Shown here in pieces: positions 2,559-13,889 of a stretch of 13,889 nt of DNA. This DNA comes from Phycisphaerales bacterium UBA4658 (lineage in GTDB: Bacteria; Planctomycetota; Phycisphaerae; Phycisphaerales; UBA1924), in assembly GCA_002405485.1 (NCBI GenBank), contig DHLW01000081.1:16722-30610 (forward strand), read 5' to 3'. A model generated the notes under the pieces. That model was not told where the DNA came from. It saw only the letters and a program-made list of their open reading frames with translations, and ran no database searches. Numbering within the stretch: position 1 is the stretch's first letter; every line of letters starts with the position of its first letter. Both the position numbers and the translations under genes were made by a program.

Positions 2559-5500
2559 ATGTCGAAGATTCGAACGCCCAGGATCCTGGCGGCGTTGGCG
2601 TGCTGTATGGGCGGGTTGCTCTCCGCCTCAGCCATCGCCCAGCCCGCAAACAACACGTGCGGTCAGAACCGTGCGTCATTCACCATCCCCAGCACCGGCG
2701 GTGTTGTGACCCAGTCCGTCACCGGCTGGACGCGCGACGGCGCCGCCTGCTCCGGCACCACGGGTGCTGACGTGTACTACTACTTCACCCCGGCCACCGC
2801 TGGTCCCTGGCGGCTGGACACCTGCACCAGCCCGAGCTTCGACTCGGTGCTCTCCATCCACGAGGACATCTGCCCCGTTGCCGCCACCACCTACGCCGAT
2901 GGCGCCACCGCGGCCGTCGCGTGCAGCGACGACTCCTGCGGCTCATCTTCACGGATTTCGTCCATCACGCTGACCCCCGGCGAAACGTACATCATCCGCG
3001 TCGCCCGTTGGTCCGGCACCGCCGCGGCCACGTTCACCCTCACGGTCCTCGACCTCGGTGTGACCGGCGCCTGCTGCAATGCTGCTGGCGTCTGCACCGT
3101 GGTGACCGCTGCGGCGTGCACCACCTCCTTCCAGGGCAGCGGCACCGGCTGCTCCCCGAACCCCTGCCCCCAGCCCCCGGCCAACGACCTGTGCACGGCG
3201 GCTGAGGTCATCCCCGCGACGGCCATCCCGTTCAACGCCAGCGTGACCGGCAACCTGCTCGTCGCCGGCCCCACCACGACGATCACGCCGGGCGTCTGCG
3301 CGTCCTCGGCCCGTGACGTGTTCTACTCCTTCACGCCCGTGGACAGCGGCAGCTACACCTTCACCACCTGCAACAGTGTCACGGGCACGCTCGATACGGT
3401 CCTGTCAGTCCACAGCGCCTGCCCGGCCGACGGCAGCAACTCCATCGGCTGCAGCGACGACTCCTGCACCGGCGGCGTCGGTCCGTCCACCATCTCCAAC
3501 CTCGCCCTCACCGGCGGCACGACCTACATCATCCGCGTCGCCCGCTGGTCCACCGGCGCCGGCGGCCCCTTCCGGCTGGACATCACCACCGGCGCGTTCG
3601 GCGCCTGCTGCGACACCGCCGCCGGCACCTGCCTCCTGCAGAGCCAGGCGTCCTGCCCGACCGGCTTCCAGGGTGACGGCACGCTGTGCTCTCCGAACCC
3701 CTGCCTCGGCGCGTGCTGCAACCCGACCTCCGGTGCCTGCACGCTGACCGGCTCGGCCGCCTGCGCCTCGCCCAACGTCTTCCAGGGAACGGGCACGCTC
3801 TGCACCCCGAACCCCTGCCCGCAGCCCCCGCCCCCGGCCAACGACGAGTGCACCGCCGCCGTCGCTCTGACCGTCGGCACCGCCGGCTCCGGTCAGCTCA
3901 CCGGCGCCACCGGCACGGACATCAGCCTCTGCTCCGCTACGGACGTGGACGTCTGGTTCTCCGTGACCCCGGCCGCCAGCGGCACGTTCACGGTCACCGT
4001 GACGCCCTCGAGCACGTCCGATGACGCGGCGGCGATCGCCGTGTTCGAGTCCTGCCCCCCGACTCCGGACGTTCACCTGGCCTGCACGGCTCAGCCCGGC
4101 CTGGGTACGGTCAGCACCGTCACCTTCTCCGGTGTCGGCGGCTCGACGTACTTCATCCGCGCTGGCGCGTTCCTCGGTGACGCCGGCAGCTTCAGCATTC
4201 TCGTGCAGGGCGTGACCGCTGGCGCCTGCTGCAATGACATCACCGGCGTGTGCACCCTCGTGACCACCGGCGTCTGCGCGACTGGCTCGACCTACCAGGG
4301 CGACAACACCGTCTGCACCCCCAGCCCGTGCCCGGCTTCCGGCGCGTGCTGCAATGACACGACCGGCACCTGCTCCACGACCATCCAGGCCGCCTGCCCC
4401 TCCGGCAGCACCTGGCAGGGCGCGGCGACCGTCTGCACCCCGAACCCCTGCCCGCAGCCCCCGCCCCCGGCCAACGACGACTGCGCCTCGGCGGTTGCTC
4501 TGACCGTCGGCGCTGCTCCGATCCCGGGCACGACCGCGGCCGCTACCCAGAGCCAGACCGGCTCGTGCACCGGCTCGACGCTGGACGTGTTCTACAGCTT
4601 CAACGCCGCCGCGGCCGGCACCTTCACCGCGACCGTTGACTCCGCCTCCACCACCCTGTTCTCGATCATCGCTCTGGATGCGTGCGGTGGCGCCGAGCTC
4701 GCCTGCACGGGTGCGCTCGTCGATCCGGCCGTCCTGACCTTCTCCGTCCCCGGCGCCGGCACCTACTACCTCCGCGTCGCCACCTTCGTCCCCGGCGAGA
4801 GCTTCACGGTGAGCATCTCGACCACGATCGCCGGCGCGTGCTGCAACCCGGTCAACGGCTTCTGCACCATCTCCACGACCGGCGCTGCCGGCTGCGCCTC
4901 GGGCACCAACTACCAGGGCGACAACACCGTCTGCACCCCCAACCCCTGCCCGCAGCCCCCGCCCCCGGCCAACGACACCTGCGGCACCGCTCAGGCCCTG
5001 GCGCTGAACGTCCCCTTCCTCGGCGACAACACCGCGGCGACCGGTGACGGCACCGAAGGCCCCGGCGGCGCGTGCTACTTCACCAGCCCGACCAACTTCA
5101 GCAAGGCCGTCTGGTTCACCTTCACCGCTCCGGCGACCGGTCTCTACGGCATCACCGCCTGCGGTTCGAGCTTCGACACCCTCCTCTCCATCTTCGACGG
5201 CACCTGCGCCGCGGTCGGCACCGAGCTCGGCTGCGACGATGACAACTGCGACGGCATCACGCCCCCGGGCAGCGGCCTCGCCTCCATCATCGCGCCGGTC
5301 TCCCTCACCGGCGGTCAGGTCTACCTGATCCGGCTCTCGTCCTACACCCCGACCGGCAGCACGACGCCCTCCGTCGGCGCCTACACCATCACGGTCACGG
5401 GCACCGCCCCGGCCGGCGTCTGCTGCCGCGGCGCTACCTGCAGCACCGCGGTCGCCCCGGCCGCCTGCGTCACCACCGGCACTCAGTGGGGCGCGAGCTT

Positions 5501-5729
5501 CAGCACCGCTTCCGGCACCTGCAACATCGCCGGCAACAACACCTCCCCCTGCTGCCACGCCAACTACGACAAGTCCACCGACGGCATCCAGGTCGCCGAC
5601 ATCTTCGCCTTCCTCAACGACTGGTTCGCCTCCAGCACCTTCGCCGACTTCGGCGGCGACGGCACCGTGGCCCCGGACGTGAACGACATCTTCGACTTCC
5701 TCAACGCCTGGTTCGCCGGCGGCTGCTAA
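2559..5729 (+). CDS. Secreted mosaic protein: five PPC-like domains, six GACC Cys-rich modules, dockerin-like C-terminus
   Basis: A 1,056-residue exported protein of unknown function. Residues 1-27 form a signal peptide with likely cleavage at ASAIA/QPAN. Five PPC-like beta-sandwich domains (about 28-169, 208-347, 427-554, 639-758, 807-952) share a pattern DVxYxFTP...FDxVLSxH...CSDDSC...TYIIRVA. Between them are Cys-rich modules opening with GACC at 170, 348, 384, 555, 595 and 759, and a GVCC variant at 953, most closing with C[TS]PNPC. The linker PQPPPPANDxC recurs. Residues 998-1056 are a dockerin-like duplication opening with CC and ending WFAGGC. Those loops depart from canonical calcium loops by short insertions. 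The ATG at 2559 is chosen because it starts the signal peptide and has AAGGTGG seven bases upstream; the frame is open further upstream without family features. Codons are strongly C-ending, hinting at high expression. Its tandem paralogue follows at 5933. Adhesion or surface display is plausible but inferred. Confidence 0.85.
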   Translation: MSKIRTPRILAALACCMGGLLSASAIAQPANNTCGQNRASFTIPSTGGVVTQSVTGWTRDGAACSGTTGADVYYYFTPATAGPWRLDTCTSPSFDSVLSIHEDICPVAATTYADGATAAVACSDDSCGSSSRISSITLTPGETYIIRVARWSGTAAATFTLTVLDLGVTGACCNAAGVCTVVTAAACTTSFQGSGTGCSPNPCPQPPANDLCTAAEVIPATAIPFNASVTGNLLVAGPTTTITPGVCASSARDVFYSFTPVDSGSYTFTTCNSVTGTLDTVLSVHSACPADGSNSIGCSDDSCTGGVGPSTISNLALTGGTTYIIRVARWSTGAGGPFRLDITTGAFGACCDTAAGTCLLQSQASCPTGFQGDGTLCSPNPCLGACCNPTSGACTLTGSAACASPNVFQGTGTLCTPNPCPQPPPPANDECTAAVALTVGTAGSGQLTGATGTDISLCSATDVDVWFSVTPAASGTFTVTVTPSSTSDDAAAIAVFESCPPTPDVHLACTAQPGLGTVSTVTFSGVGGSTYFIRAGAFLGDAGSFSILVQGVTAGACCNDITGVCTLVTTGVCATGSTYQGDNTVCTPSPCPASGACCNDTTGTCSTTIQAACPSGSTWQGAATVCTPNPCPQPPPPANDDCASAVALTVGAAPIPGTTAAATQSQTGSCTGSTLDVFYSFNAAAAGTFTATVDSASTTLFSIIALDACGGAELACTGALVDPAVLTFSVPGAGTYYLRVATFVPGESFTVSISTTIAGACCNPVNGFCTISTTGAAGCASGTNYQGDNTVCTPNPCPQPPPPANDTCGTAQALALNVPFLGDNTAATGDGTEGPGGACYFTSPTNFSKAVWFTFTAPATGLYGITACGSSFDTLLSIFDGTCAAVGTELGCDDDNCDGITPPGSGLASIIAPVSLTGGQVYLIRLSSYTPTGSTTPSVGAYTITVTGTAPAGVCCRGATCSTAVAPAACVTTGTQWGASFSTASGTCNIAGNNTSPCCHANYDKSTDGIQVADIFAFLNDWFASSTFADFGGDGTVAPDVNDIFDFLNAWFAGGC
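3799..3847 (+). repeat. 49-base perfect direct repeat, copy 1 (linker)
   Basis: This 49-base stretch is identical to 4432-4480. It encodes the junction CTPNPCPQPPPPANDxC between a Cys-rich module and the next beta-sandwich domain. Related copies differ by one or a few bases at 4930-4977 in the same gene and at 7616-7656 in the paralogue. Such conservation at the DNA level suggests recent module duplication or gene conversion. Confidence 0.85.
4432..4480 (+). repeat. 49-base perfect direct repeat, copy 2 (linker)
   Basis: Identical to 3799-3847, at the equivalent module junction two beta-sandwich domains further on. A second exact repeat, 32 bases long, occurs close by: 4292-4323 matches 4910-4941 and encodes the YQGDNTVCTP segment. 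Confidence 0.85.
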
Positions 5730-5761
5730 GCCACCCGGTTGATCTCAACGCGTCTACACCC

Positions 5762-5792
5762 CAGCCCCTCGGCCCGTCCGGCCGAGGGGCTG
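5762..5792 (+). terminator. Terminator-like hairpin after the first secreted mosaic gene
   Basis: CAGCCCCTCGGCC (5762-5774) and GGCCGAGGGGCTG (5780-5792) form a perfect 13-base-pair stem with a five-base loop, followed by TCGTTT. It begins 32 bases after the stop codon at 5727-5729. The T-run is short, as is common in GC-rich genomes. Confidence 0.75.
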
Positions 5793-5848
5793 TCGTTTAC
5801 GGAGCCCGCGTCCACGATCCGCGCGATCGGAAGGGGCCAACTTCCGGA

Positions 5849-5864
5849 ATGTTGCTCGCAACAT
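5849..5864. repeat. Inverted repeat abutting the second promoter
   Basis: ATGTTGC (5849-5855) and GCAACAT (5858-5864) are exact inverted repeats with a two-base spacer. The right arm ends one base before the -35 TTGACA, an operator-like position. A lone GCAACAT half-site also occurs at 2282-2288, upstream of the paralogue's promoter. The regulator is unknown. Confidence 0.5.
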
Positions 5865-5865
5865 C

Positions 5866-5894
5866 TTGACAGGTGCGTTAAAATCGAGCAAACT
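5866..5894 (+). promoter_or_regulatory. Candidate sigma70-type promoter of the second secreted mosaic gene
   Basis: TTGACA (5866-5871), 17 bases, then CAAACT (5889-5894): the same hexamers and spacing as at 2341-2369. The spacer sequences are otherwise different, so the match is not simple duplication of the whole segment. Predicted transcription would start near 5901, leaving a leader of only about 32 bases before the ATG at 5933. TAAAAT at 5879-5884 is an alternative -10 but lacks a -35 at proper spacing. Confidence 0.6.
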
Positions 5895-5932
5895 CTCTGA
5901 AATGGGGCGGTGTTTTCAGAGCGGGAGTCACC

Positions 5933-8407
5933 ATGGGTCACGTGTTCTCGGGAGCTCGGTGGGGCCTTGGGGTTGCTTGTGCCTTGACTCTGGGTGTGCC
6001 GGCGCTCGCGCAGCCGGCCAACAACGTGTGCGGGCAGAATCAGCCCGCGTACACGATTCCCGGTACTGGCGGCGTGGTGACCGGAACAACCTCGGCGGCG
6101 ACGGTCGATGGCGGCGGGTGCGCCGGGTCGGGTGGTGACGTGTATTGGTACTTCACCCCGGCGATCTCCGGCGCCTATGCGTTGAACACCTGTGCCACCT
6201 CGCCGAGCTTTGACACGGTGCTCTCGGTGCATCTCGGATGCCCGGCAAACACGTCGAACTATGTTGCAACGGGAACGTGCAACGATGACAGTTGCGGTCT
6301 GCTCTCGGATCTGCCCAGCGTCAATCTGACCGCGGGTGTGACGTATGTCATCCGGGTGGCGAACTATGGCTCGGCGACCGGGACCGTTCGGCTGACCGTG
6401 AGCACGCCGACGCCGCCCGCTCAGAACAACCAGTGCTCCGCGATCGCGACGCTTCCCGCGTTCAACTTCACGGGCACGGGGTTCACGACCAGCGGCTCGC
6501 TTGTCGGGGCAACGACCGACGGATGGGCGAGCATCGGGGGCGGCGTGTTTGCATGTCTGGACACGAACACCGCGGCCGCCCCCAACAGCAGGAACGACGT
6601 CTGGTATCGCTTCACGCCCAGCGTCTCGACGAACTTCAACTTCTCGCTGTGCAACAGCGCGACGTCGTGGGACTCGGCGCTGTCGCTGCACACCGACTGC
6701 CCCGACTCCGGCTCGGGCGTGAGCAACACGATCGCCTGCAACGACGACGGGGTGTGCGTGGCGGGGGTCGGGCTCTCGGCGATCGTCGGCCAGCCGCTGA
6801 GCGCGGGCGTGCCGGTCTATATCCGCGTGGCACGATTTGGCGTTGGTGGACCGACCGCCGACCAGTTCCAACTCCAGGTCACCAGCGACGCGCTCGGGGC
6901 CTGCTGCCGACCAGATGGCTCGTGCTCGCTGACGGACTCGGCGGGATGCACGAGCATCGGCGGCGCGTACCAGGGCGACGGCTCGGCGTGCGCATCGGTG
7001 ATCTGCACGGGGGCTTGCTGCGACCCGGCCACAGGTGTCTGCTCCGTCACCGGGCCGGCGAACTGCAACTCGCCGAGTACCTTCCAGAGCGTCGGCACGG
7101 TCTGCTCTCCGAATCCGTGCCCGCAGCCCCCGCCTCCGGCCAATGACGAGTGCTCGGGCGCGGCGGTCGTGACCGCTGGCACGCCGACGACCACGGGCTT
7201 CAACACCACCGCAACCACCGGTGCCAGCGATGTGCACTCGTGCGCAACGGGCGGGCTTGGCGTCTGGTTCGCATTCACCGCACCGGCCACATCCTCGTGG
7301 CAGATCGATACCAACGGTTCGGCGTTCGACACGCTGGTCTCGGTGTTTGACGGCTGCGGCGGGAACGAACTGGCGTGCGATGACGACTCGGGCGCCGGCG
7401 TGAGCTCGCTGGTGACCGTCTCATTGAACGCGGGCCAGTCGGTCCGCATCCTGATCTCGGCGTTCGGTGCGGGCACCGGCGGGAACTTCTCGCTGAACAT
7501 CGCCTCCATCGTCAGCGGAGCGTGCTGTAACTCGGTGACCGGCGCGTGCGCCTTGACCAGCACCGGCTCGGCCGGGTGTGCTGCCGGAACGCTGTACCAG
7601 GGCGACAACACGGTGTGCACCCCCAACCCCTGCCCGCAGCCCCCGCCCCCGGCCAATGACGACTGCTCCACGGCTCAGGCCCTGGCGCTCAACGTCGCCT
7701 TCACTGGCTCCAATAGCGCGGCGACCGGCGACGGTCTGGAAGGCCCCGGCGGCGCGTGCTACTTCAACAGCCCGACCAACTTCAGCAAGGCCGTCTGGTT
7801 CACCTTCACAGCCCCGGCGACGGATGCCTACGGCATCACCGCGTGCGGCTCGGCGATCGATACGGTGCTCTCGGTCTTCGACGGCTCATGTGCGGCGATC
7901 GGCGGCGAACTCGGGTGCGATGACGACACCTGCGACGGCGTCTCTCCCCCGGGCAGCGGGCTGGCCTCCATCATCGCGCCCGTGAGCATGACGGCCGGTC
8001 AGACGTATCTCATTCGGCTCGCGGTCTACACCGGCCCCGATTTCCCCGTGCCAGGCGGCGGATACACGATCACCGTCACCGGCACGCCGGTGGCGGGCGG
8101 CGTCTGCTGCCGAGGGGCAACCTGCAGCACCGCCGTGAGTCAGACGAACTGCACGGCGGGCACGAACCACGGCGCGATGTACGTCGCGTCGGCCTTGACC
8201 TGCAACCAGAATGCGAATCTGGTGACGCCATGCTGCCATGCCGACTACGACAAGATGGGAGGCATCGCCGTTCCGGATATCTTCGCGTACATCAACGACT
8301 GGTTCGCCAGCTCGCCTTATGCCGCGATCGGCGGCGACGGGACCGGCGGCGGCGCAACCGTGCAGAACCTCTTCGACTGGATCAACTCCTGGTTCGCGGG
8401 GTGCTGA
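5933..8407 (+). CDS. Secreted mosaic protein, paralogue of the preceding gene, with dockerin-like C-terminus
   Basis: An 824-residue exported protein of unknown function. A signal peptide occupies residues 1-26 (cleavage near ALA/QPAN). Four PPC-like beta-sandwich domains lie at about 27-170, 171-321, 402-528 and 577-722. GACC Cys-rich modules open at 322, 360 and 529, with the GVCC variant at 723. The C-terminus (767-824) starts CCHADYD and ends WFAGC. Both ends match the upstream paralogue closely: the mature N-terminus QPANNxCGQN...TIPxTGGVVT, and the last beta-sandwich with SPTNFSKAVWFTFTAPAT and SGLASIIAPVS. It has one beta-sandwich and three GACC modules fewer than that paralogue. Codon use is more mixed (many gcg, acg, ggg) except in the last third. 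The ATG at 5933 has GGGAG five bases upstream and starts the signal peptide. It has its own promoter-like sequence and terminator, so it is probably a separate transcript. Adhesive or surface function is inference. Confidence 0.85.
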   Translation: MGHVFSGARWGLGVACALTLGVPALAQPANNVCGQNQPAYTIPGTGGVVTGTTSAATVDGGGCAGSGGDVYWYFTPAISGAYALNTCATSPSFDTVLSVHLGCPANTSNYVATGTCNDDSCGLLSDLPSVNLTAGVTYVIRVANYGSATGTVRLTVSTPTPPAQNNQCSAIATLPAFNFTGTGFTTSGSLVGATTDGWASIGGGVFACLDTNTAAAPNSRNDVWYRFTPSVSTNFNFSLCNSATSWDSALSLHTDCPDSGSGVSNTIACNDDGVCVAGVGLSAIVGQPLSAGVPVYIRVARFGVGGPTADQFQLQVTSDALGACCRPDGSCSLTDSAGCTSIGGAYQGDGSACASVICTGACCDPATGVCSVTGPANCNSPSTFQSVGTVCSPNPCPQPPPPANDECSGAAVVTAGTPTTTGFNTTATTGASDVHSCATGGLGVWFAFTAPATSSWQIDTNGSAFDTLVSVFDGCGGNELACDDDSGAGVSSLVTVSLNAGQSVRILISAFGAGTGGNFSLNIASIVSGACCNSVTGACALTSTGSAGCAAGTLYQGDNTVCTPNPCPQPPPPANDDCSTAQALALNVAFTGSNSAATGDGLEGPGGACYFNSPTNFSKAVWFTFTAPATDAYGITACGSAIDTVLSVFDGSCAAIGGELGCDDDTCDGVSPPGSGLASIIAPVSMTAGQTYLIRLAVYTGPDFPVPGGGYTITVTGTPVAGGVCCRGATCSTAVSQTNCTAGTNHGAMYVASALTCNQNANLVTPCCHADYDKMGGIAVPDIFAYINDWFASSPYAAIGGDGTGGGATVQNLFDWINSWFAGC

Positions 8408-8472
8408 ACCCGCCTTTCCGGGCGACTTCCGGGATCCGGTGGCGGACCGAAGACAACCCAATGCGTGCTGCT

Positions 8473-8505
8473 CAACGCCCCCGAACCTGCTGTTCGGGGG
8501 CGTTG
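8473..8505 (+). terminator. Terminator-like hairpin after the second secreted mosaic gene
   Basis: CAACGCCCCCGAAC (8473-8486) and GTTCGGGGGCGTTG (8492-8505) form a perfect 14-base-pair stem with a five-base loop CTGCT. It lies 65 bases after the stop codon. Downstream is TTCACT rather than a full T-run. Confidence 0.7.
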
Positions 8506-8608
8506 TTCACTCGGGCGATCAAGGTTCTATAACCATGGACAACGAGCGATCGGGCAGTCTGCGCGGGCCAGGATCTGATGTGCGGCCCCAAGAGGGATTT
8601 CTGGGCAA

Positions 8609-8638
8609 ACGACCGACCTTGGCCGGTCGATCGGTCGT
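8609..8638. repeat. Inverted repeat in the glmS leader or upstream region
   Basis: ACGACCGA (8609-8616) and TCGGTCGT (8631-8638) are exact inverted repeats. Within them, CGACC (8614-8618) can alternatively pair with GGTCG (8625-8629), so two overlapping pairings are possible. It sits 108 bases upstream of the glmS start. No regulatory role is established. Confidence 0.35.
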
Positions 8639-8745
8639 AGCAGGGGACTCTGGTCCCATCGCGCCTTCGCGGGTGTCGGTGGGGTTAGGATGTACGCCGT
8701 CGGCGTGTCGGTCGCATCGTTCGGACTGAAACTGGAACCTCTATC

Positions 8746-10584
8746 ATGTGCGGAATCGTCGCGTATCTCGGCTCCAAGCCCGCCCAGCACCTTCTGCTTG
8801 AGGGTCTCAAGCGGCTGGAGTATCGCGGGTACGACTCGGCGGGGATCGCCGTGATCAACGGCAAGATCACCGTCTGCAAGGCCGTCGGGCGTGTGAGCGT
8901 GCTGGAGGAGAAGCTCGACTCGATCGGCGGGCTTGCCGGATCGCTGGGGCTTTGCCACACGCGCTGGGCGACGCACGGCGGGGTGAGCGAAGTCAACGCA
9001 CACCCGCACACCGACGACAAGCATGGCATCGCCGTCGTGCACAACGGGATCATCGAGAACTATTCGGCCCTGAAGACCTACTTGAAGGACAAGGGGCACA
9101 CGTTCAAGGGCGAGACCGACACCGAAGTGCTGGCGATGCTCATCGGCGAGCTGTACGAGGGCGACCTGGAGGCGGCGGTGCAGGCCGCGCTGCGCGAGGT
9201 GACGGGGGCCTATGCGATCGCGGTGATCTGCGAGAAGGAGCCGAACGTGCTCGTGGGCGCCCGCAAGGGTTCGCCGCTGATCGTGGGCGTGGGGAATGAC
9301 GAGTATGTCGTGGCGTCGGATGCGAGCGCGATCGTGGCGCACACGGCGCACGCGTTTGCGCTCGATGACTACAACGTCGTGAAGCTGGAGCGCACGCCGC
9401 AGGGCTGCACCTTCCGAACGAGCACCATCCACAACGTGCCGGTGACGCCGAAGATCGAGCAGCTTGAGATTGATCTGGCGCAGATCGAGCTTGGGCAGTA
9501 CGAGCACTACATGCTCAAGGAGATCTTCGAGCAGCCGCAGAGCTTGCGGAACTGCATCTCCGGGCGCATCAACACCGACGACGGCAAGGTGACCCTCGGC
9601 GGGGTGAGCAACTTCGCCAAGGAGCTGACGCGGGCCAAGAAGGTGATCCTCACGGCCCAGGGCACGGCCCTGCACGCGGCGATGATCGGCCGGTACCTGC
9701 TGGAGGATCTCGCCAAGGTTCCGGCGCAGACGGAGTATGCCAGCGAGTTTCGCTATCGCAACCCGATCATCGAGGACGGCACGGTGGTCGTGGCGGTGAG
9801 CCAGTCGGGCGAGACTGCCGACACCCTCGCCGCGCTGCACGAGGCCAAGGATCGCGGTGCGCTCGCGCTGGGGGTCGTGAACGTGGTCGGCTCGTCGATT
9901 GCGAGGGAGACCGACGCGGGCGTGTACCTGCGCGTGGGTCCTGAGATCGGCGTGGCGAGCACCAAGGCGTTCACGGGCCAGGTGGCGGTGCTGACGCTCA
10001 TCGGGCTGTTCATGGCCCGTCGGCGGATCATGAGCGCGGACCAGTGCTCGGACCTGCTGAAGGCGATGCAGTCGATTCCGGAGAAGATCGAGCGCGTGCT
10101 GGAACAGGCGCCGCGGATCAAGCGTGTGACGGAGAAGTATGTCGAGCGTGAGAACTGGCTGTTCCTGGGCCGCGGGTACAACTATCCGACTGCGCTCGAG
10201 GGCGCACTGAAGCTGAAGGAGATCAGCTACATCCACGCCGAGGGCATGCCGGCGGCGGAGATGAAGCACGGCCCGATCGCGCTCATCAACGAGGGGATGC
10301 CGGCGGTGTTCATCGCCAACAAGGGCCGGCAGTACGAGAAGGTGCTGAGCAACATCCACGAGGTCCGCGCCCGCGGCGGGCACGTGATCGCCGTGGCGAC
10401 CGAGGGCGACGAGCACATCAAGCACCACGCCCACGACGTGCTGTACGTCCCGGACATTCCTGAACCGCTGAGCCCGCTGCTGACGGTGATCCCGCTGCAG
10501 ATCATGGCGTATTACGCGGCGCTGGCGCGCGGGCATGATGTGGATAAGCCGCGGAACCTGGCGAAGAGTGTGACGGTGGAGTGA
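8746..10584 (+). CDS. glmS: Glutamine--fructose-6-phosphate aminotransferase (isomerizing)
   Basis: GlmS converts fructose 6-phosphate and glutamine to glucosamine 6-phosphate and glutamate, the first step toward UDP-GlcNAc in the cytoplasm. The 612 residues match the usual length of about 600-610. Cys2, directly after the initiator Met, is the N-terminal nucleophile of the glutaminase domain (1 to about 240), supported by RGYDSAG (27-33), RWATHG (73-78), HNGIIENY (99-106) and GETDTE (122-127). Two SIS domains follow: SQSGETADT (352-360), GVASTKAFT (402-410), EGALKLKEISYIHAEG (485-500), KHGPIALI (507-514) and the invariant C-terminal tail DKPRNLAKSVTVE. One oddity: the sugar-phosphate loop usually written CGTSxHA reads QGTALHA (305-311). 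The ATG at 8746 is fixed by Cys2; GGAA eight bases upstream is a weak ribosome-binding site. The gene starts after a strong terminator-like hairpin, so it probably has its own promoter. Confidence 0.98.
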   Translation: MCGIVAYLGSKPAQHLLLEGLKRLEYRGYDSAGIAVINGKITVCKAVGRVSVLEEKLDSIGGLAGSLGLCHTRWATHGGVSEVNAHPHTDDKHGIAVVHNGIIENYSALKTYLKDKGHTFKGETDTEVLAMLIGELYEGDLEAAVQAALREVTGAYAIAVICEKEPNVLVGARKGSPLIVGVGNDEYVVASDASAIVAHTAHAFALDDYNVVKLERTPQGCTFRTSTIHNVPVTPKIEQLEIDLAQIELGQYEHYMLKEIFEQPQSLRNCISGRINTDDGKVTLGGVSNFAKELTRAKKVILTAQGTALHAAMIGRYLLEDLAKVPAQTEYASEFRYRNPIIEDGTVVVAVSQSGETADTLAALHEAKDRGALALGVVNVVGSSIARETDAGVYLRVGPEIGVASTKAFTGQVAVLTLIGLFMARRRIMSADQCSDLLKAMQSIPEKIERVLEQAPRIKRVTEKYVERENWLFLGRGYNYPTALEGALKLKEISYIHAEGMPAAEMKHGPIALINEGMPAVFIANKGRQYEKVLSNIHEVRARGGHVIAVATEGDEHIKHHAHDVLYVPDIPEPLSPLLTVIPLQIMAYYAALARGHDVDKPRNLAKSVTVE

Positions 10585-10592
10585 GTGCAAAC

Positions 10593-10618
10593 AGCCGCGT
10601 CATGGCAATGTGGCGGCT
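10593..10618 (+). terminator. Weak hairpin after glmS
   Basis: AGCCGC (10593-10598) and GCGGCT (10613-10618) are exact inverted repeats, and the interior GTCAT...ATGTG can partly pair, giving a longer imperfect stem. It starts nine bases after the glmS stop. There is no T-run, so termination is uncertain. Confidence 0.35.
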
Positions 10619-10662
10619 TGTGACGCCTCGTGTGAGATGCCTCATGTCTATATCCTTTAGGT

Positions 10663-12252
10663 ATGGACCTGTGGCACGAGATTCGGCTGGGGTTGGGAGT
10701 CGCGCTGGGCGTGCTCGCTGGTGCGATTCTGTGCTGGGCGCTACTTCGTGACCGCATGTATCGAAGCGCTCGCGGGCGGCGGTGCGTCCGGTGTTGCCAT
10801 GACATGACCGGCGTCCCGGGACGAACTTGTCCCGAGTGTGGCACGTTGGCGAAGTCTGAGAAGGTGCTCTCGGGCTATCGAGTGCGACGCGGCGGCATCG
10901 CCATGGCTGTACTCATCACTTGTGCAGCGATCGTGACAACCTATTGGTCGAGCGTGAGCAACGGCAAGTGGATGGCGTTCTCACCGATGTGGATGAAGGC
11001 GGCGGTGTGGCCCGAGCTCGGCACAACCGATCGCGTCTTCGAGCATCTGATCCAGCCGCTCCAGGGGCCAATGCCGAACGGCGTGACCAAACGGCTTCTT
11101 GCGTGGAGCTGCGAGCGCGGCATGCGATCATCACAGCCAAGAGTGGTAATCAATGCGAAGATCCTTGTACTGCGTACCGAGGCGGATCCGGCTCTTGCGG
11201 CGCAGGTCGAGCAGATGGGATTCGATCACTCCGAAGTTGAGAGTGAGCGCACGAGCTATCGGCTGCGGCGTGCCGGATCGGTCGCGGAGCTTTCATCGGT
11301 GTTGCGGCGCGGCGGTCCGGCGAACTTCCACGCGGTCGCCAAAGCCATCGAACGTGTGGGAAACATCGATCCCGAGGGCGTGCTCTCTCTTGCACGACTT
11401 GGGCCAAATCCGATGCAGGGAAGCGGATTCTCAGACACCATCATGATCGGGTTGTGGTCGGTCGTCGGGCAAGATGCACGGAGAACTGATCTGCTCTTCG
11501 ATCAGGTGCTCATGGCGGAAGACGGAAGCAGATTGGTTCATGCACCATCCGGGTTTTCCGATCGTGCTGATCTTCGAGCGATTGTCGGGCGGGCACTCGC
11601 TCGCGGCCACGAGATTGAGCAGCGTGTGGCGCTCTCTCGTTGGGTGTGGCGATTGAACGACGTCGAATCACATCGCAAGCGGAATGGCGCCACGGATGCT
11701 GAAGTTCTGAAGGATTTCCAGACGTGGGCGCCGCAGTTCGTCGCCGCAATGTGCGACACTTGTCCGGAGCTGCGAGAGGCAGTTCGGCGTGATCTGAGCA
11801 ATCTTGGCGATGATCGCATCGAAGACCTGCTCTTGAGACGAGCCGCTACCGATCCAACTGCCCGCGCGAATATCTTGGACGTGCTTTCCACCCGCGGGTA
11901 TGTTCGTCGAGTTCCCATCAGTCTGGCGGTGCGAGAGTTTGCCCTTTCGTTCATGCGAGACCCCAACAAGGAGAGGAGATTTACCGCTCGCCGAATGCTC
12001 GGCGGAATGCCCGCCTCGCTCATGCCCCAGCTTGCGAGCGTGTTCGACGACCCGAACCCGGACGTTCGTCGTGATGCCTTCGAGCTGGCGGAGAATCTTC
12101 AGAACTGGAGCGACGACCTGCATGCCTCGCTGCAGGCCATCGCTCAGAGCCCGACGCGCCCGGAAGAAGATCGTGTCGGCGCAAAGCGGGCGGTGACGGC
12201 CATGGAAAAGCGGCGCGAAGAACTACGCGCCAATCCGCCTGCCATTGAGTGA
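10663..12252 (+). CDS. Membrane protein with zinc ribbon and HEAT-like C-terminus, function unknown
   Basis: A 529-residue protein I cannot assign to a characterised family. A first hydrophobic helix spans about 8-28. It is followed by a zinc-ribbon-like segment with C41-x2-C44 and C56-PE-C59 (CPECG), in the style CxxC-x(2)-DMTGVPGRTCPECG. Similar ribbons beside membrane helices are frequent in planctomycete hypothetical proteins. A second helix spans about 79-97, so the ribbon lies in the loop between two membrane segments. The remaining 430 or so residues are soluble and largely helical. A HEAT-like unit is visible near 450-480 (LASVFDDPNPDVRRDAFELAE), and earlier segments such as PELREAVRRDLSNLGDDRIEDLLLR suggest degenerate copies. 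The ATG at 10663 gives a good N-terminal helix, but the ribosome-binding site is poor. A TGAG/CTCA hairpin lies just upstream. It is followed 24 bases on by the phosphorylase-family gene, so the two may be cotranscribed. Confidence 0.75.
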   Translation: MDLWHEIRLGLGVALGVLAGAILCWALLRDRMYRSARGRRCVRCCHDMTGVPGRTCPECGTLAKSEKVLSGYRVRRGGIAMAVLITCAAIVTTYWSSVSNGKWMAFSPMWMKAAVWPELGTTDRVFEHLIQPLQGPMPNGVTKRLLAWSCERGMRSSQPRVVINAKILVLRTEADPALAAQVEQMGFDHSEVESERTSYRLRRAGSVAELSSVLRRGGPANFHAVAKAIERVGNIDPEGVLSLARLGPNPMQGSGFSDTIMIGLWSVVGQDARRTDLLFDQVLMAEDGSRLVHAPSGFSDRADLRAIVGRALARGHEIEQRVALSRWVWRLNDVESHRKRNGATDAEVLKDFQTWAPQFVAAMCDTCPELREAVRRDLSNLGDDRIEDLLLRRAATDPTARANILDVLSTRGYVRRVPISLAVREFALSFMRDPNKERRFTARRMLGGMPASLMPQLASVFDDPNPDVRRDAFELAENLQNWSDDLHASLQAIAQSPTRPEEDRVGAKRAVTAMEKRREELRANPPAIE

Positions 12253-12276
12253 GCGAGTGAGTCATACACTCGCTCC

Positions 12277-12966
12277 GTGCCATCTGCCTCGTTGGTCATT
12301 CTTTGCCCCATGGCAATCGAACGCATGCACGTTCAGCGTGCGGTTCGAGATCTTGGTGGGCGTGAGGTTGCCGTCATCCAAACCGGCATCGGCAAGCACG
12401 CCATCATTGCCGCCGCGGCTTCGGCGATGGCCTCGCACGCGAAGTCCCAAGGCCCCGGAAAGCCGCTCCACCTGATCCTCGCCGGCGCCTGCGGCGGCCT
12501 CACGCCCGTTGACGACGTTCCCGCCATCGCCCGTGTCATCGACGAGCACGGCCATTCCTGGACGCCCGCCAACGCCGATCCATCCGGGATTACGCTGGTC
12601 GGCGTGGACACGATCATCGCGACGCCTGCGGACAAGGCCGCACTTGCCGCCCGCACGGGGGCGGCGATTGTGGACATGGAGTCCCATGCCTTTGCCGCGT
12701 GGTGCGAAGAGCGCGGGGTGCGATGGTCGGTGGTGCGCGGCGTGAGTGATACGCCGGAGGAGACGTTGCCGCATGAGGTGCTTGATTGGATCTCGCCCTC
12801 GGGCGATACGCGCTCTGTGCGTGCGGCGCGTGATCTGCTGCTGAAGCCGTGGCTGATTCCGCATGTGCTGGGCGTGCTTCGGCGGAGCAGGCGGGTGTTG
12901 CCGAAGGTGGGGCGCCGGGTGGTTGAGGTACTGCGGTCGGACGCGCTCGCGGAGGCCGCACGATGA
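12277..12966 (+). CDS. Phosphorylase-superfamily (PNP/UDP) nucleosidase-like protein
   Basis: A 229-residue protein of the nucleoside phosphorylase/nucleosidase fold, which cleaves N-glycosidic bonds of nucleosides such as MTA/SAH, futalosine or purine nucleosides. Visible family features are the first strand SLVILCPMAIE (5-15), the glycine-rich VIQTGIGKHAI (33-43), the AGACGGL loop (69-75), the substrate-binding segment IVDMESHAFA (131-140) with its MES triad, and VVRGVSDTP (152-160) with the Asp expected to contact the base. Substrate cannot be read from sequence; hopanoid-associated (HpnG-like), MqnB-like and MTA/SAH-type proteins all share this layout, and no pathway neighbour decides between them. 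The GTG at 12277 is preferred over ATG 12310 because only the longer form includes the first strand. It is 24 bases after the preceding gene and overlaps nadD by ATGA, implying translational coupling. Confidence 0.8.
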   Translation: MPSASLVILCPMAIERMHVQRAVRDLGGREVAVIQTGIGKHAIIAAAASAMASHAKSQGPGKPLHLILAGACGGLTPVDDVPAIARVIDEHGHSWTPANADPSGITLVGVDTIIATPADKAALAARTGAAIVDMESHAFAAWCEERGVRWSVVRGVSDTPEETLPHEVLDWISPSGDTRSVRAARDLLLKPWLIPHVLGVLRRSRRVLPKVGRRVVEVLRSDALAEAAR

Positions 12967-13715
12967 GCGATCATGGCGTGACGCCTTTGCCGGTGCCCAT
13001 GAGCGGCGCGGATGCGCCGGCGTTCATCGTGTTCTTTGGCGGGACGTTCGATCCGCCGCATGTGGGGCATGTGGAGCTGCCCCGTCGCGTGCGCGATGAG
13101 GTTGAGCAACGCGAAGGGGTGAGCGGGCGCGGGTGGATCGTGTATGTGCCCGCGTCGCGCTCGCCGCACAAGGCCGATGCGCCGATCGCGAGCGACGCGG
13201 ATCGGGTGGCGATGCTGAAGCTCGCACTCCGGGGAACGCCGCGGGCGGCGGTCTGGACCGATGAGGTTGATCGGGCGCAACGGGCGGGTCCGAACGTGGA
13301 GCCGAGTTACAGCGTGCAGACGCTGCGGCGTGCGCGGGAGTGGCTGGATGAGCACGGCTTCAGCGGCGTGCCGCTGCGGCTATTGATCGGGGCGGATCAG
13401 GCGATGAGCTTTCACAAGTGGCGTGAGCCGCGTGACATCCTGCGGCTGGCAAGCCCGGTGGTGATGGTGCGCAGTGGCAGTGGGGCGGATGCGGCGGCAT
13501 TGGCTCGCGGGCTGGAAGCAACGGGATTCTGGACTGCCGACGAGTTGGACAAGTGGGCGAGCGGCGTGGTCAACGTGGGGCGGCTGGACGTGAGCGCGAC
13601 GGAAACACGAGCGGCACTCGCCCTTGGTGCATGGGCGAGTGCCGCGTCGTCGATGGATCCGGATGTGCTGGCGTACGTCCGCGAGCGCGGGCTGTACGCA
13701 AGGCCGCGGGCTTAG
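12963..13715 (+). CDS. nadD: Nicotinate-nucleotide adenylyltransferase
   Basis: NadD transfers AMP from ATP to nicotinate mononucleotide, giving deamido-NAD in cytoplasmic NAD synthesis. The 250-residue protein has the nucleotidyltransferase signature GGTFDPPHVGH (26-36) with the HxGH catalytic pair, SPHK (67-70), the LLIGADQ strand-loop (140-146) followed by FHKW (150-153), and VSATETR (210-216) corresponding to the usual ISxTxIR. It is longer than typical NadD (about 190-220 residues): extra residues are at the N-terminus (about 20), around 46-57, and in a charged stretch near 173-200. The start at 12963 has GGAGG seven bases upstream and overlaps the previous stop as ATGA. An internal ATG at 12999 would give a length closer to the family but lacks a good ribosome-binding site. 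Its TAG stop overlaps the stop of the convergent gene. Confidence 0.93.
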   Translation: MSDHGVTPLPVPMSGADAPAFIVFFGGTFDPPHVGHVELPRRVRDEVEQREGVSGRGWIVYVPASRSPHKADAPIASDADRVAMLKLALRGTPRAAVWTDEVDRAQRAGPNVEPSYSVQTLRRAREWLDEHGFSGVPLRLLIGADQAMSFHKWREPRDILRLASPVVMVRSGSGADAAALARGLEATGFWTADELDKWASGVVNVGRLDVSATETRAALALGAWASAASSMDPDVLAYVRERGLYARPRA

Positions 13716-13889
13716 CAGCCGGCGAACCAGGCGTTGAGATACGCGAAGATGTCGGTGACGTCGAGCGTGCCGCCGTTGAAGTTCGCGCTGGGCAGCCCGC
13801 CGAAGAACGCGTTGAGATACGCGAAGAGGTCGTTGGTCTCCAGCCCGTTGACGCCGTCGAAGTTCGCCGGGCAGCAGGTGGTGGGGTTG
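13712..13889 (-). CDS. C-terminal end of a third dockerin-like (GC-type) exported protein, partial
   Basis: Only the last 59 codons lie in the window; the gene enters from the right edge. The sequence opens with CCPANFDG and contains two related repeats, NDLFAYLNAFFGG and TDIFAYLNAWFAGC, the latter ending directly at a TAA stop (13714-13712). This matches the C-termini of the two secreted mosaic proteins at 2559-5729 and 5933-8407 in the CC opening, the aromatic FAYLN repeats, and the final WFAGC. By analogy the full protein is probably large and exported, but its N-terminal domains cannot be seen. The stop codon overlaps that of nadD on the other strand, with no room for a terminator between the two genes. 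Confidence 0.85.
   Translation of the reverse strand, partial: NPTTCCPANFDGVNGLETNDLFAYLNAFFGGLPSANFNGGTLDVTDIFAYLNAWFAGC

What the first reader, a model, noticed from the sequence alone, without database searches (positions are those of the whole stretch)
5552..13889. Three proteins share a Cys-capped dockerin-like C-terminus: CC at its start, WFAG(G)C at the very end
The C-termini at 5550-5726, 8231-8404 and 13715-13888 (minus) all open with CCxA[ND][YF]D, carry two copies of a [DN][IL]FxxLN-type helix, and stop immediately after WFAGC or WFAGGC. The calcium-type loops vary in length and lose acidic residues between copies, while the first CC and the last Cys do not change. This suggests a disulfide-closed module, or a sorting or attachment signal that needs the free end, more than a standard calcium dockerin. 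I recall such tails being called 'GC-type dockerin' in Phycisphaerae; their partner or anchor is, to my knowledge, not characterised, and no cohesin is visible here.
Basis: partly seen in the sequence, partly recalled or inferred. Interest (0 to 1): 0.7.

Follow-up and report, generated by a model that had tools for sequence, protein, structure and literature searches.

The report
Disulfide-clasped dockerin tails in Planctomycetes
Three neighbouring secreted proteins end in the same small calcium-binding docking module whose two ends are probably stapled together by a disulfide bond; the module is an already named but uncharacterised family, found on well over a hundred proteins of this bacterium, and sister species carry matching 'socket' proteins that wear the same tail.

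Summary
The tails belong to, or lie near, NCBIfam NF041540 (dockerin_GC); the window's 79%-complete Phycisphaerales genome has 151 matches at E<=10, 115 of the listed ones over cut-off. Wider data change the reading. (1) The end need not be free: of 130 terminal tails with the Cys, 77 stop there, 53 run 1-3 residues on. (2) 'CC' is a junction: its first Cys closes an upstream six-Cys module in 33 of 37 cases. (3) The N-site and C-site Cys go together: of 297 two-repeat tails 284 have both, 8 neither, 5 one; two further Cys pairs co-occur (9 of 9, 4 of 4 terminal tails; one internal domain breaks the first). I infer a disulfide clasp. (4) Sixteen proteins carry a half-dockerin with both Cys. 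(5) Sortase 0 of 61, exosortase unspecific, cohesins rare (9 of 120 strong). But both congeners sampled encode cohesin proteins ending in this tail; a model of one matches cohesins. Best reading: disulfide-clasped dockerins assembling a surface protein layer; binding untested.

The parts
2559..5729 (+). secreted protein 1; likely start MSKIRT... (signal-peptide-like by eye), four GBD_T9SS_assoc (PF23759) stretches, seven six-Cys modules, C-terminal GC-type dockerin
5421..5552 (+). last six-Cys module of protein 1; its sixth Cys (5550-5552) is the first C of the 'CC'
5553..5726 (+). GC-type dockerin of protein 1 (second C of the CC to the terminal Cys, WFAGGC)
5933..8407 (+). secreted protein 2; signal-peptide-like start by eye, two GBD_T9SS_assoc stretches, four six-Cys modules, GC-type-dockerin-like tail
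8105..8233 (+). last six-Cys module of protein 2; its sixth Cys is the first C of the 'CC'
8234..8404 (+). GC-type-dockerin-like tail of protein 2 (below the NF041540 cut-off: 19.5 and 24.4 of 29 bits)
13712..13888 (-). C-terminus of protein 3 with GC-type dockerin (37.7 bits) and stop; the frame continues beyond the window into a masked or gap stretch

Best explanation
The tails are dockerin-like docking modules: two calcium-loop/helix repeats whose N-terminal flank and C-terminal end are joined by a disulfide between the Cys just before loop 1 and the Cys just after helix 2. This would be a covalent form of the non-covalent head-to-tail 'clasp' known in cellulosomal dockerins. They sit at the C-terminus of well over a hundred proteins of this genome, most of them apparently secreted, and hold these on a shared extracellular or surface scaffold. 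In the window's genus at least part of that scaffold is probably made by secreted cohesin proteins that carry the same dockerin and so can chain. In the many related genera without a recognisable cohesin the receptor is something else. Shown: the domain, the Cys correlations, the junction nature of CC, the distribution, and the cohesin-dockerin_GC proteins in congeners. Inferred: disulfide formation, calcium binding, cohesin binding, surface location.
Against: No structure or redox data; coordinates of the AlphaFold model were not available, so no S-S distance was measured. Foldseek gave no dockerin match for the tail (one unrelated row, E 4.8). Pfam Dockerin_1 did not match the three tails. 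Cohesins found strongly in only 9 of 120 family genomes and not in the window's own genome, so cohesin cannot be the general partner. The Cys association is not corrected for relatedness among paralogs and orthologs. One internal domain has the helix-2 Cys without the column-5 Cys. Total Cys parity of the proteins shows no signal (58 even, 45 odd of 103, crude).
Confidence: 0.62

Rival explanations
1. C-terminal sorting or covalent attachment signal: the near-terminal Cys is the chemical handle (lipid, thioester or isopeptide-like transfer) recognised by a dedicated enzyme, the dockerin repeats being only the recognition fold.
For: Domain is C-terminal in 136 of 140 assessable cases and the Cys lies within 4 residues of the end in the 130 that have it; found on many different proteins; no general cohesin partner. 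An exosortase gene is present in 61 of 61 family genomes.
Against: N-site and C-site Cys are kept or lost together, which attachment does not predict; 53 of 130 continue past the Cys, and 3 of 4 internal domains have Cys at both sites, one of them with the N-site Cys displaced upstream; no membrane segment or basic cluster seen in the tails; sortase 0 of 61; exosortase is equally present in 4 of 4 same-order genomes without the family.
Confidence: 0.13
2. The tail is not an anchor but a stability cap: a disulfide-closed calcium mini-domain that protects the C-terminus of secreted proteins, or takes part in homotypic self-association, without a dedicated receptor.
For: High copy number with no co-distributed cohesin or sortase; half-dockerins with both Cys.
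Against: Congener cohesins linked to the same tail suggest a cohesin-dockerin system; dockerin repeats are otherwise a binding module.
Confidence: 0.15
3. Ordinary calcium dockerin bound by an ordinary cohesin; the Cys are incidental stabilisers.
For: Loop positions 1, 3 and 12 keep D/N or D/E in most domains; most of the 15 tails sampled in the other genus have DxDxDG loops; cohesin fold in congeners.
Against: Pfam Dockerin_1 not matched by the window tails; cohesin missing or unrecognisable in most family genomes, 50 of 61 of which have 20 or more of the tails; both Cys kept in 284 of 297.
Confidence: 0.1

Closest known systems
NCBIfam NF041540 dockerin_GC (GC-type dockerin domain-anchored protein)
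   Same: Profile match over 29 bits for tail 3 (37.7) and, in the genome search, tail 1 (30.2); same C-terminal position and GC end.
   Different: Tail 2 scores below the cut-off; single-repeat and internal copies exist; the end may run 1-3 residues past the Cys.
Cellulosomal type I dockerin (Pfam PF00404; e.g. C. thermocellum) with its head-tail intramolecular clasp
   Same: Two calcium-loop/helix repeats; termini expected to meet (clasp described in PMC4728124, passages).
   Different: Not matched by PF00404 here; the clasp would be a disulfide instead of ring stacking; the inter-repeat linker looks shorter (canonical length recalled).
'Planctosome' cohesin/dockerin hypothesis of freshwater Phycisphaerae (PMC6461901)
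   Same: Dockerin + HYR + cohesin adaptor proteins: congener proteins here also combine cohesin, HYR and dockerin, and a lamin-tail protein lies beside the cohesins.
   Different: The passages I saw do not mention Cys, the GC end or a clasp; here the adaptor dockerin is GC-type and the window's genome has well over a hundred such dockerins.
PEP-CTERM/exosortase and LPXTG/sortase sorting
   Same: A short C-terminal module shared by many secreted proteins.
   Different: No hydrophobic segment or basic tail; sortase 0 of 61; exosortase not specific.

Membership tests
NF041540 dockerin_GC | whole-protein score of 29 bits or more | tested here: inconclusive
   tail 3 37.7 (met), tail 1 23.7 but 30.2, tail 2 19.5/24.4 (not met); so tails 1 and 3 are filed as members, tail 2 as a near relative
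NF041540 dockerin_GC | GC at the extreme C-terminus (feature as recalled and as the name says) | tested here: met
   all three window tails; genome-wide 77 of 136 terminal tails have Cys as last residue
Dockerin type I (Pfam PF00404) | match to the Pfam profile | tested here: not met
   no PF00404 row at E <= 1 for the three window proteins
Dockerin (fold) | two F-hand calcium loops each followed by a helix | tested here: inconclusive
Cohesin-dockerin system | cohesin encoded in the same genome | tested here: inconclusive
   own genome (79% complete) none; both congeners in the sample yes
Cohesin-dockerin system | calcium-dependent binding of cohesin by the dockerin | not testable with these tools
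   needs protein
Sortase substrate (LPXTG type) | sortase in the genome and LPXTG plus membrane segment | tested here: not met
   PF04203 in 0 of 61 family genomes; no such segment seen in the tails
PEP-CTERM/exosortase substrate | PEP motif, membrane segment, basic cluster (recalled) | tested here: not met
   not seen in the tail sequences, although exosortase is present in 61 of 61
Disulfide-clasped module | the two Cys bonded to each other | tested here: inconclusive
   correlated presence; no distance or redox measurement

The most novel reading that the evidence does not exclude
GC-dockerins are built to be closed by disulfides in two ways: within one chain (two repeats, Cys to Cys) and between chains, where half-dockerins of one repeat pair as covalent homo- or heterodimers that rebuild the two-fold dockerin. 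Together with cohesin-dockerin_GC adaptors they would make a self-extending, calcium- and disulfide-locked extracellular protein coat holding well over a hundred different secreted proteins.
Probability: 0.22. Interest if true: 0.78.

Novelty: new variant of a known kind. Interest (0 to 1): 0.52.

Why it matters
A named but uncharacterised anchor family occurs in all 61 sampled genomes of this Phycisphaerales family, with 20 or more matches in 50 of them (the count per genome being capped near 81). The Cys correlations give it a concrete, testable chemistry, and the cohesin-dockerin_GC proteins of congeners give a concrete candidate partner. If right, these Planctomycetes display much of their secretome on a cohesin-dockerin scaffold with no known link to cellulose, and natural disulfide-clasped dockerins and half-dockerins would be new parts for protein assembly.

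Tried and rejected
Free-end signal: rejected because 53 of 130 Cys-bearing terminal tails run on and four domains are internal. CC as a dockerin signature: rejected. Sortase: 0 of 61. Exosortase as dedicated enzyme: 61 of 61, but also 4 of 4 same-order genomes without the family, and 8 of 16 such genomes in all. Cohesin as general partner: PF00963 over cut-off in 5 of 61, any match at E <= 1 in 13 of 61; lineage profile A2 in 4 of 61; A3 in 14 of 120 at E <= 0.05, nine of them strong. One of the five PF00963 genomes (G206) has a cohesin array not found by A2, possibly contamination. Family-only distribution: at first it looked limited to one GTDB family, but the class sample shows it also in 8 of 10 genomes of family f81, with scattered matches elsewhere. 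Cys parity of whole proteins: no signal, 58 even and 45 odd of 103 with a crude signal-peptide cut. Foldseek of the 58-aa tail against PDB: one unrelated row. Similarity of the congener cohesin clusters to the own-genome stretches held: only one 52-base stretch. Third Cys pair (columns 9/32): weak (p 0.003; 4 shared of 32 and 7), not claimed. Phrase search 'GC-type dockerin' gave 0 papers; other literature searches. First regex scorings of the Cys sites misplaced several N-sites (in one search three rows: two tails with both Cys and one with the N-site Cys only); they were replaced by the column-based scoring.
Full report
WHAT IS THERE. The three C-termini were confirmed at the stated places. 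No held paper contains the phrase 'GC-type dockerin'. The window lies in an unnamed 3.9 Mb, 203-contig genome of 79% completeness. G247 and G287 are in the window's genus.

GENOME-WIDE COUNT. The genome search gave 151 matches at E <= 10, with 150 of 171 candidates scored; I count 115 listed rows over the cut-off. I fetched the stretches around the matches and found 152 ORFs with the domain (E <= 0.01) using a profile built from the tails; 140 could be assessed, 12 being masked or cut by contig or stretch ends. The seeds of that profile were tails ending in or near Cys, which biases against finding Cys-less tails. Of 130 full-length candidates, 91 have a crudely scored signal-peptide-like start.

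THE END. In 136 terminal domains the last Cys is followed by nothing in 77, by Pro in 34, by 1-3 other residues in 19; 6 have no Cys. Four of the 140 domains are internal. So the Cys is nearly always close to the end, but the free end is not required.

THE START. 37 of 148 assessed tails have CC at the start. In 33 of these 37 the first C is the sixth Cys of a six-Cys module lying directly upstream. In the window the modules run 5421-5552 and 8105-8233, ending exactly on the first C of each CC. Of the four exceptions, one is the window's own cut-off third tail, whose upstream is masked, one has a similar Cys-rich stretch with wider spacing, and two have no such module. Six-Cys modules number 162 in 45 of 152 proteins.

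CYSTEINES GO IN PAIRS. Own genome, column-based scoring: both sites 131 of 140 (115 two-repeat and 16 single-repeat), N only 2, C only 2, neither 5. A sample of 20 evenly spaced 20 kb stretches of another genus: 15 of 15 tails found have both. Best tails of 28 other genomes (27 other genera and one congener): 29 of 29 (biased, as they are best matches to a model that includes the Cys). Loci from named contigs: both 112 of 113 (chosen by similarity). Pooled two-repeat tails: both 284, C only 2, N only 3, neither 8, of 297 (Fisher 5e-12). Two extra pairs occur together in terminal tails: CxC[DN] at the start with FLNC in helix 2 (columns 5 and 51, 9 of 9) and a loop-2 Cys with a helix-2 Cys in the other genus (columns 34 and 47, 4 of 4). 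Against this, one internal domain (L098) has the helix-2 Cys without the column-5 one, though a CxC lies further upstream (7 both, 1 helix only, 132 neither). Of the nine, two are from a congener and look like orthologs of own-genome rows, and three are neighbours on one own contig, so independent events are fewer. Two probable orthologs without the terminal Cys (L077, L234) have instead a second Cys close to the N-site one. This is what bonded cysteines predict and what a single reactive terminal Cys does not. A rival view, that a sub-lineage lost both by descent, is not excluded for the 'neither' class.

CALCIUM LOOPS. In 124 two-repeat domains each Cys site is kept in 117. Loop position 1 is D/N in 123 and 114, position 3 in 116 and 93, position 5 D/N/S in 74 and 64, position 12 D/E in 122 and 117 (loops 1 and 2). 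So calcium binding is plausible for most, and the Cys are about as conserved as the best loop positions.

HALF-DOCKERINS. Sixteen proteins of the genome end in one repeat with both Cys, and a congener locus has two more (L184). In a single loop-helix unit the two Cys lie at opposite ends of the helix (my reasoning from the fold), so a bond within one unit is unlikely. Two units could close each other and rebuild the two-fold dockerin. This is a prediction only.

PARTNER. Family-wide, NF041540 is in 61 of 61 genomes, 60 over the cut-off, 50 with 20 or more matches (about 81 candidates at most were scored per genome). Sortase 0 of 61. Exosortase 61 of 61 but not specific. PF00963 cohesin over cut-off 5 of 61. 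A lineage profile built from the congener domains hits 14 of 120 at E <= 0.05, nine of them below 1e-18, and not the window's genome. The two other genomes of the window's genus shown in that sample, G247 and G287, both have clusters of cohesin proteins ending in a GC-dockerin, some cut by contig ends. The smallest are 214-226 aa: signal-peptide-like start, cohesin, GC-dockerin, with NF041540 over the cut-off. The AlphaFold2 model of one (mean pLDDT 73) matches cohesins in PDB, best E 1.4e-8, with 63 matches at E <= 0.001 of which 50 are listed. The cohesin sequence profile agrees (E 0.0015). Of six complete cohesin ORFs fetched from other genera, five end in tails without a terminal Cys; the sixth (L294, G208) ends in another two-repeat tail closing in GGGAC, which my profile does not recognise. 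So cohesin is a plausible partner in this genus and cannot be the general one.

DISTRIBUTION. Phylum sample: any match 12 of 199, over cut-off 6 of 199, five of these in the window's family. Class sample: 82 of 198 any match, 43 over cut-off; family f1 11 of 11 and f81 8 of 10, same-order families f2 0 of 3, f82 0 of 2, f3 1 of 8. Of 14 loci outside the family, my profile hit 5 tails: two with Cys at both sites (one terminal), two with neither, one with C only, so weak matches elsewhere are at least partly other dockerin-like repeats.

LITERATURE. PMC6461901 (passages) proposed a cohesin/dockerin 'planctosome' in freshwater Phycisphaerae with a dockerin-HYR-cohesin adaptor and an LTD protein. 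The congener cluster has the same kinds of parts. The passages say nothing of Cys. Searches with dockerin plus Phycisphaerae, Planctomycetes and cohesin, sorting signal, Phycisphaer, Planctomycetota, and 'planctosome' listed no paper whose title or abstract start speaks of GC-type dockerins; for most of these papers I saw only the listing.

VERDICT. A real, abundant, named family with uncharacterised function. The new content is the paired-Cys evidence for a disulfide clasp, the explanation of CC, the half-dockerins, and cohesin proteins wearing the same tail in the same genus.

Noticed in passing
window 3072-5552 and 6902-8233: A six-Cys module (CC..C..C..C..PC) recurs 7 and 4 times in proteins 1 and 2 and 162 times in 45 of 152 dockerin-bearing ORFs; neither Pfam nor NCBIfam listed it for these proteins.
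   Followed up: partly
L070, L071, L058 (own genome contigs 65, 64, 193): Half-dockerin genes occur in three neighbouring pairs of look-alike proteins, one pair on the window's own contig about 10 kb before the window.
   Followed up: partly
L289:2038-10647 (-), G247 contig 162: A 2870-aa protein with lamin-tail, Ig-like, GEVED and GBD_T9SS_assoc domains and a GC-dockerin tail lies inside the congener cohesin cluster; a candidate large scaffold or anchor.
   Followed up: partly
L156-L159, L163, L169 (other genera): In several genera both calcium loops carry matching insertions (such as GSGDPSDPGYGIPDG), lengthening the domain to as much as about 80 aa while both Cys stay.
   Followed up: no
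L077 and L234: Probable orthologs that lack the terminal Cys carry a CVGxPADW[DN]C start instead, as if the N-site Cys had found a new partner.
   Followed up: partly
L289, L290, L312 minimal cohesin-dockerin proteins: A third dockerin Cys in the inter-repeat linker (DCRADF) is shared by all three, together with one Cys in the cohesin.
   Followed up: no
L294:2231-4981 (+), G208: A cohesin protein of another genus ends in a different Cys-rich two-repeat tail (CTQDFNGDGD...FFRVLGGGAC) that the GC-dockerin profile does not hit: perhaps another Cys-capped dockerin type.
   Followed up: no
G245 (family genome): 165 first-look candidates, 81 scored, but only 3 matches to NF041540: possibly a diverged tail type.
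   Followed up: no
window 13888 and beyond (L315): The third protein runs into a masked or gap stretch just outside the window, so its upstream domain is unknown.
   Followed up: yes
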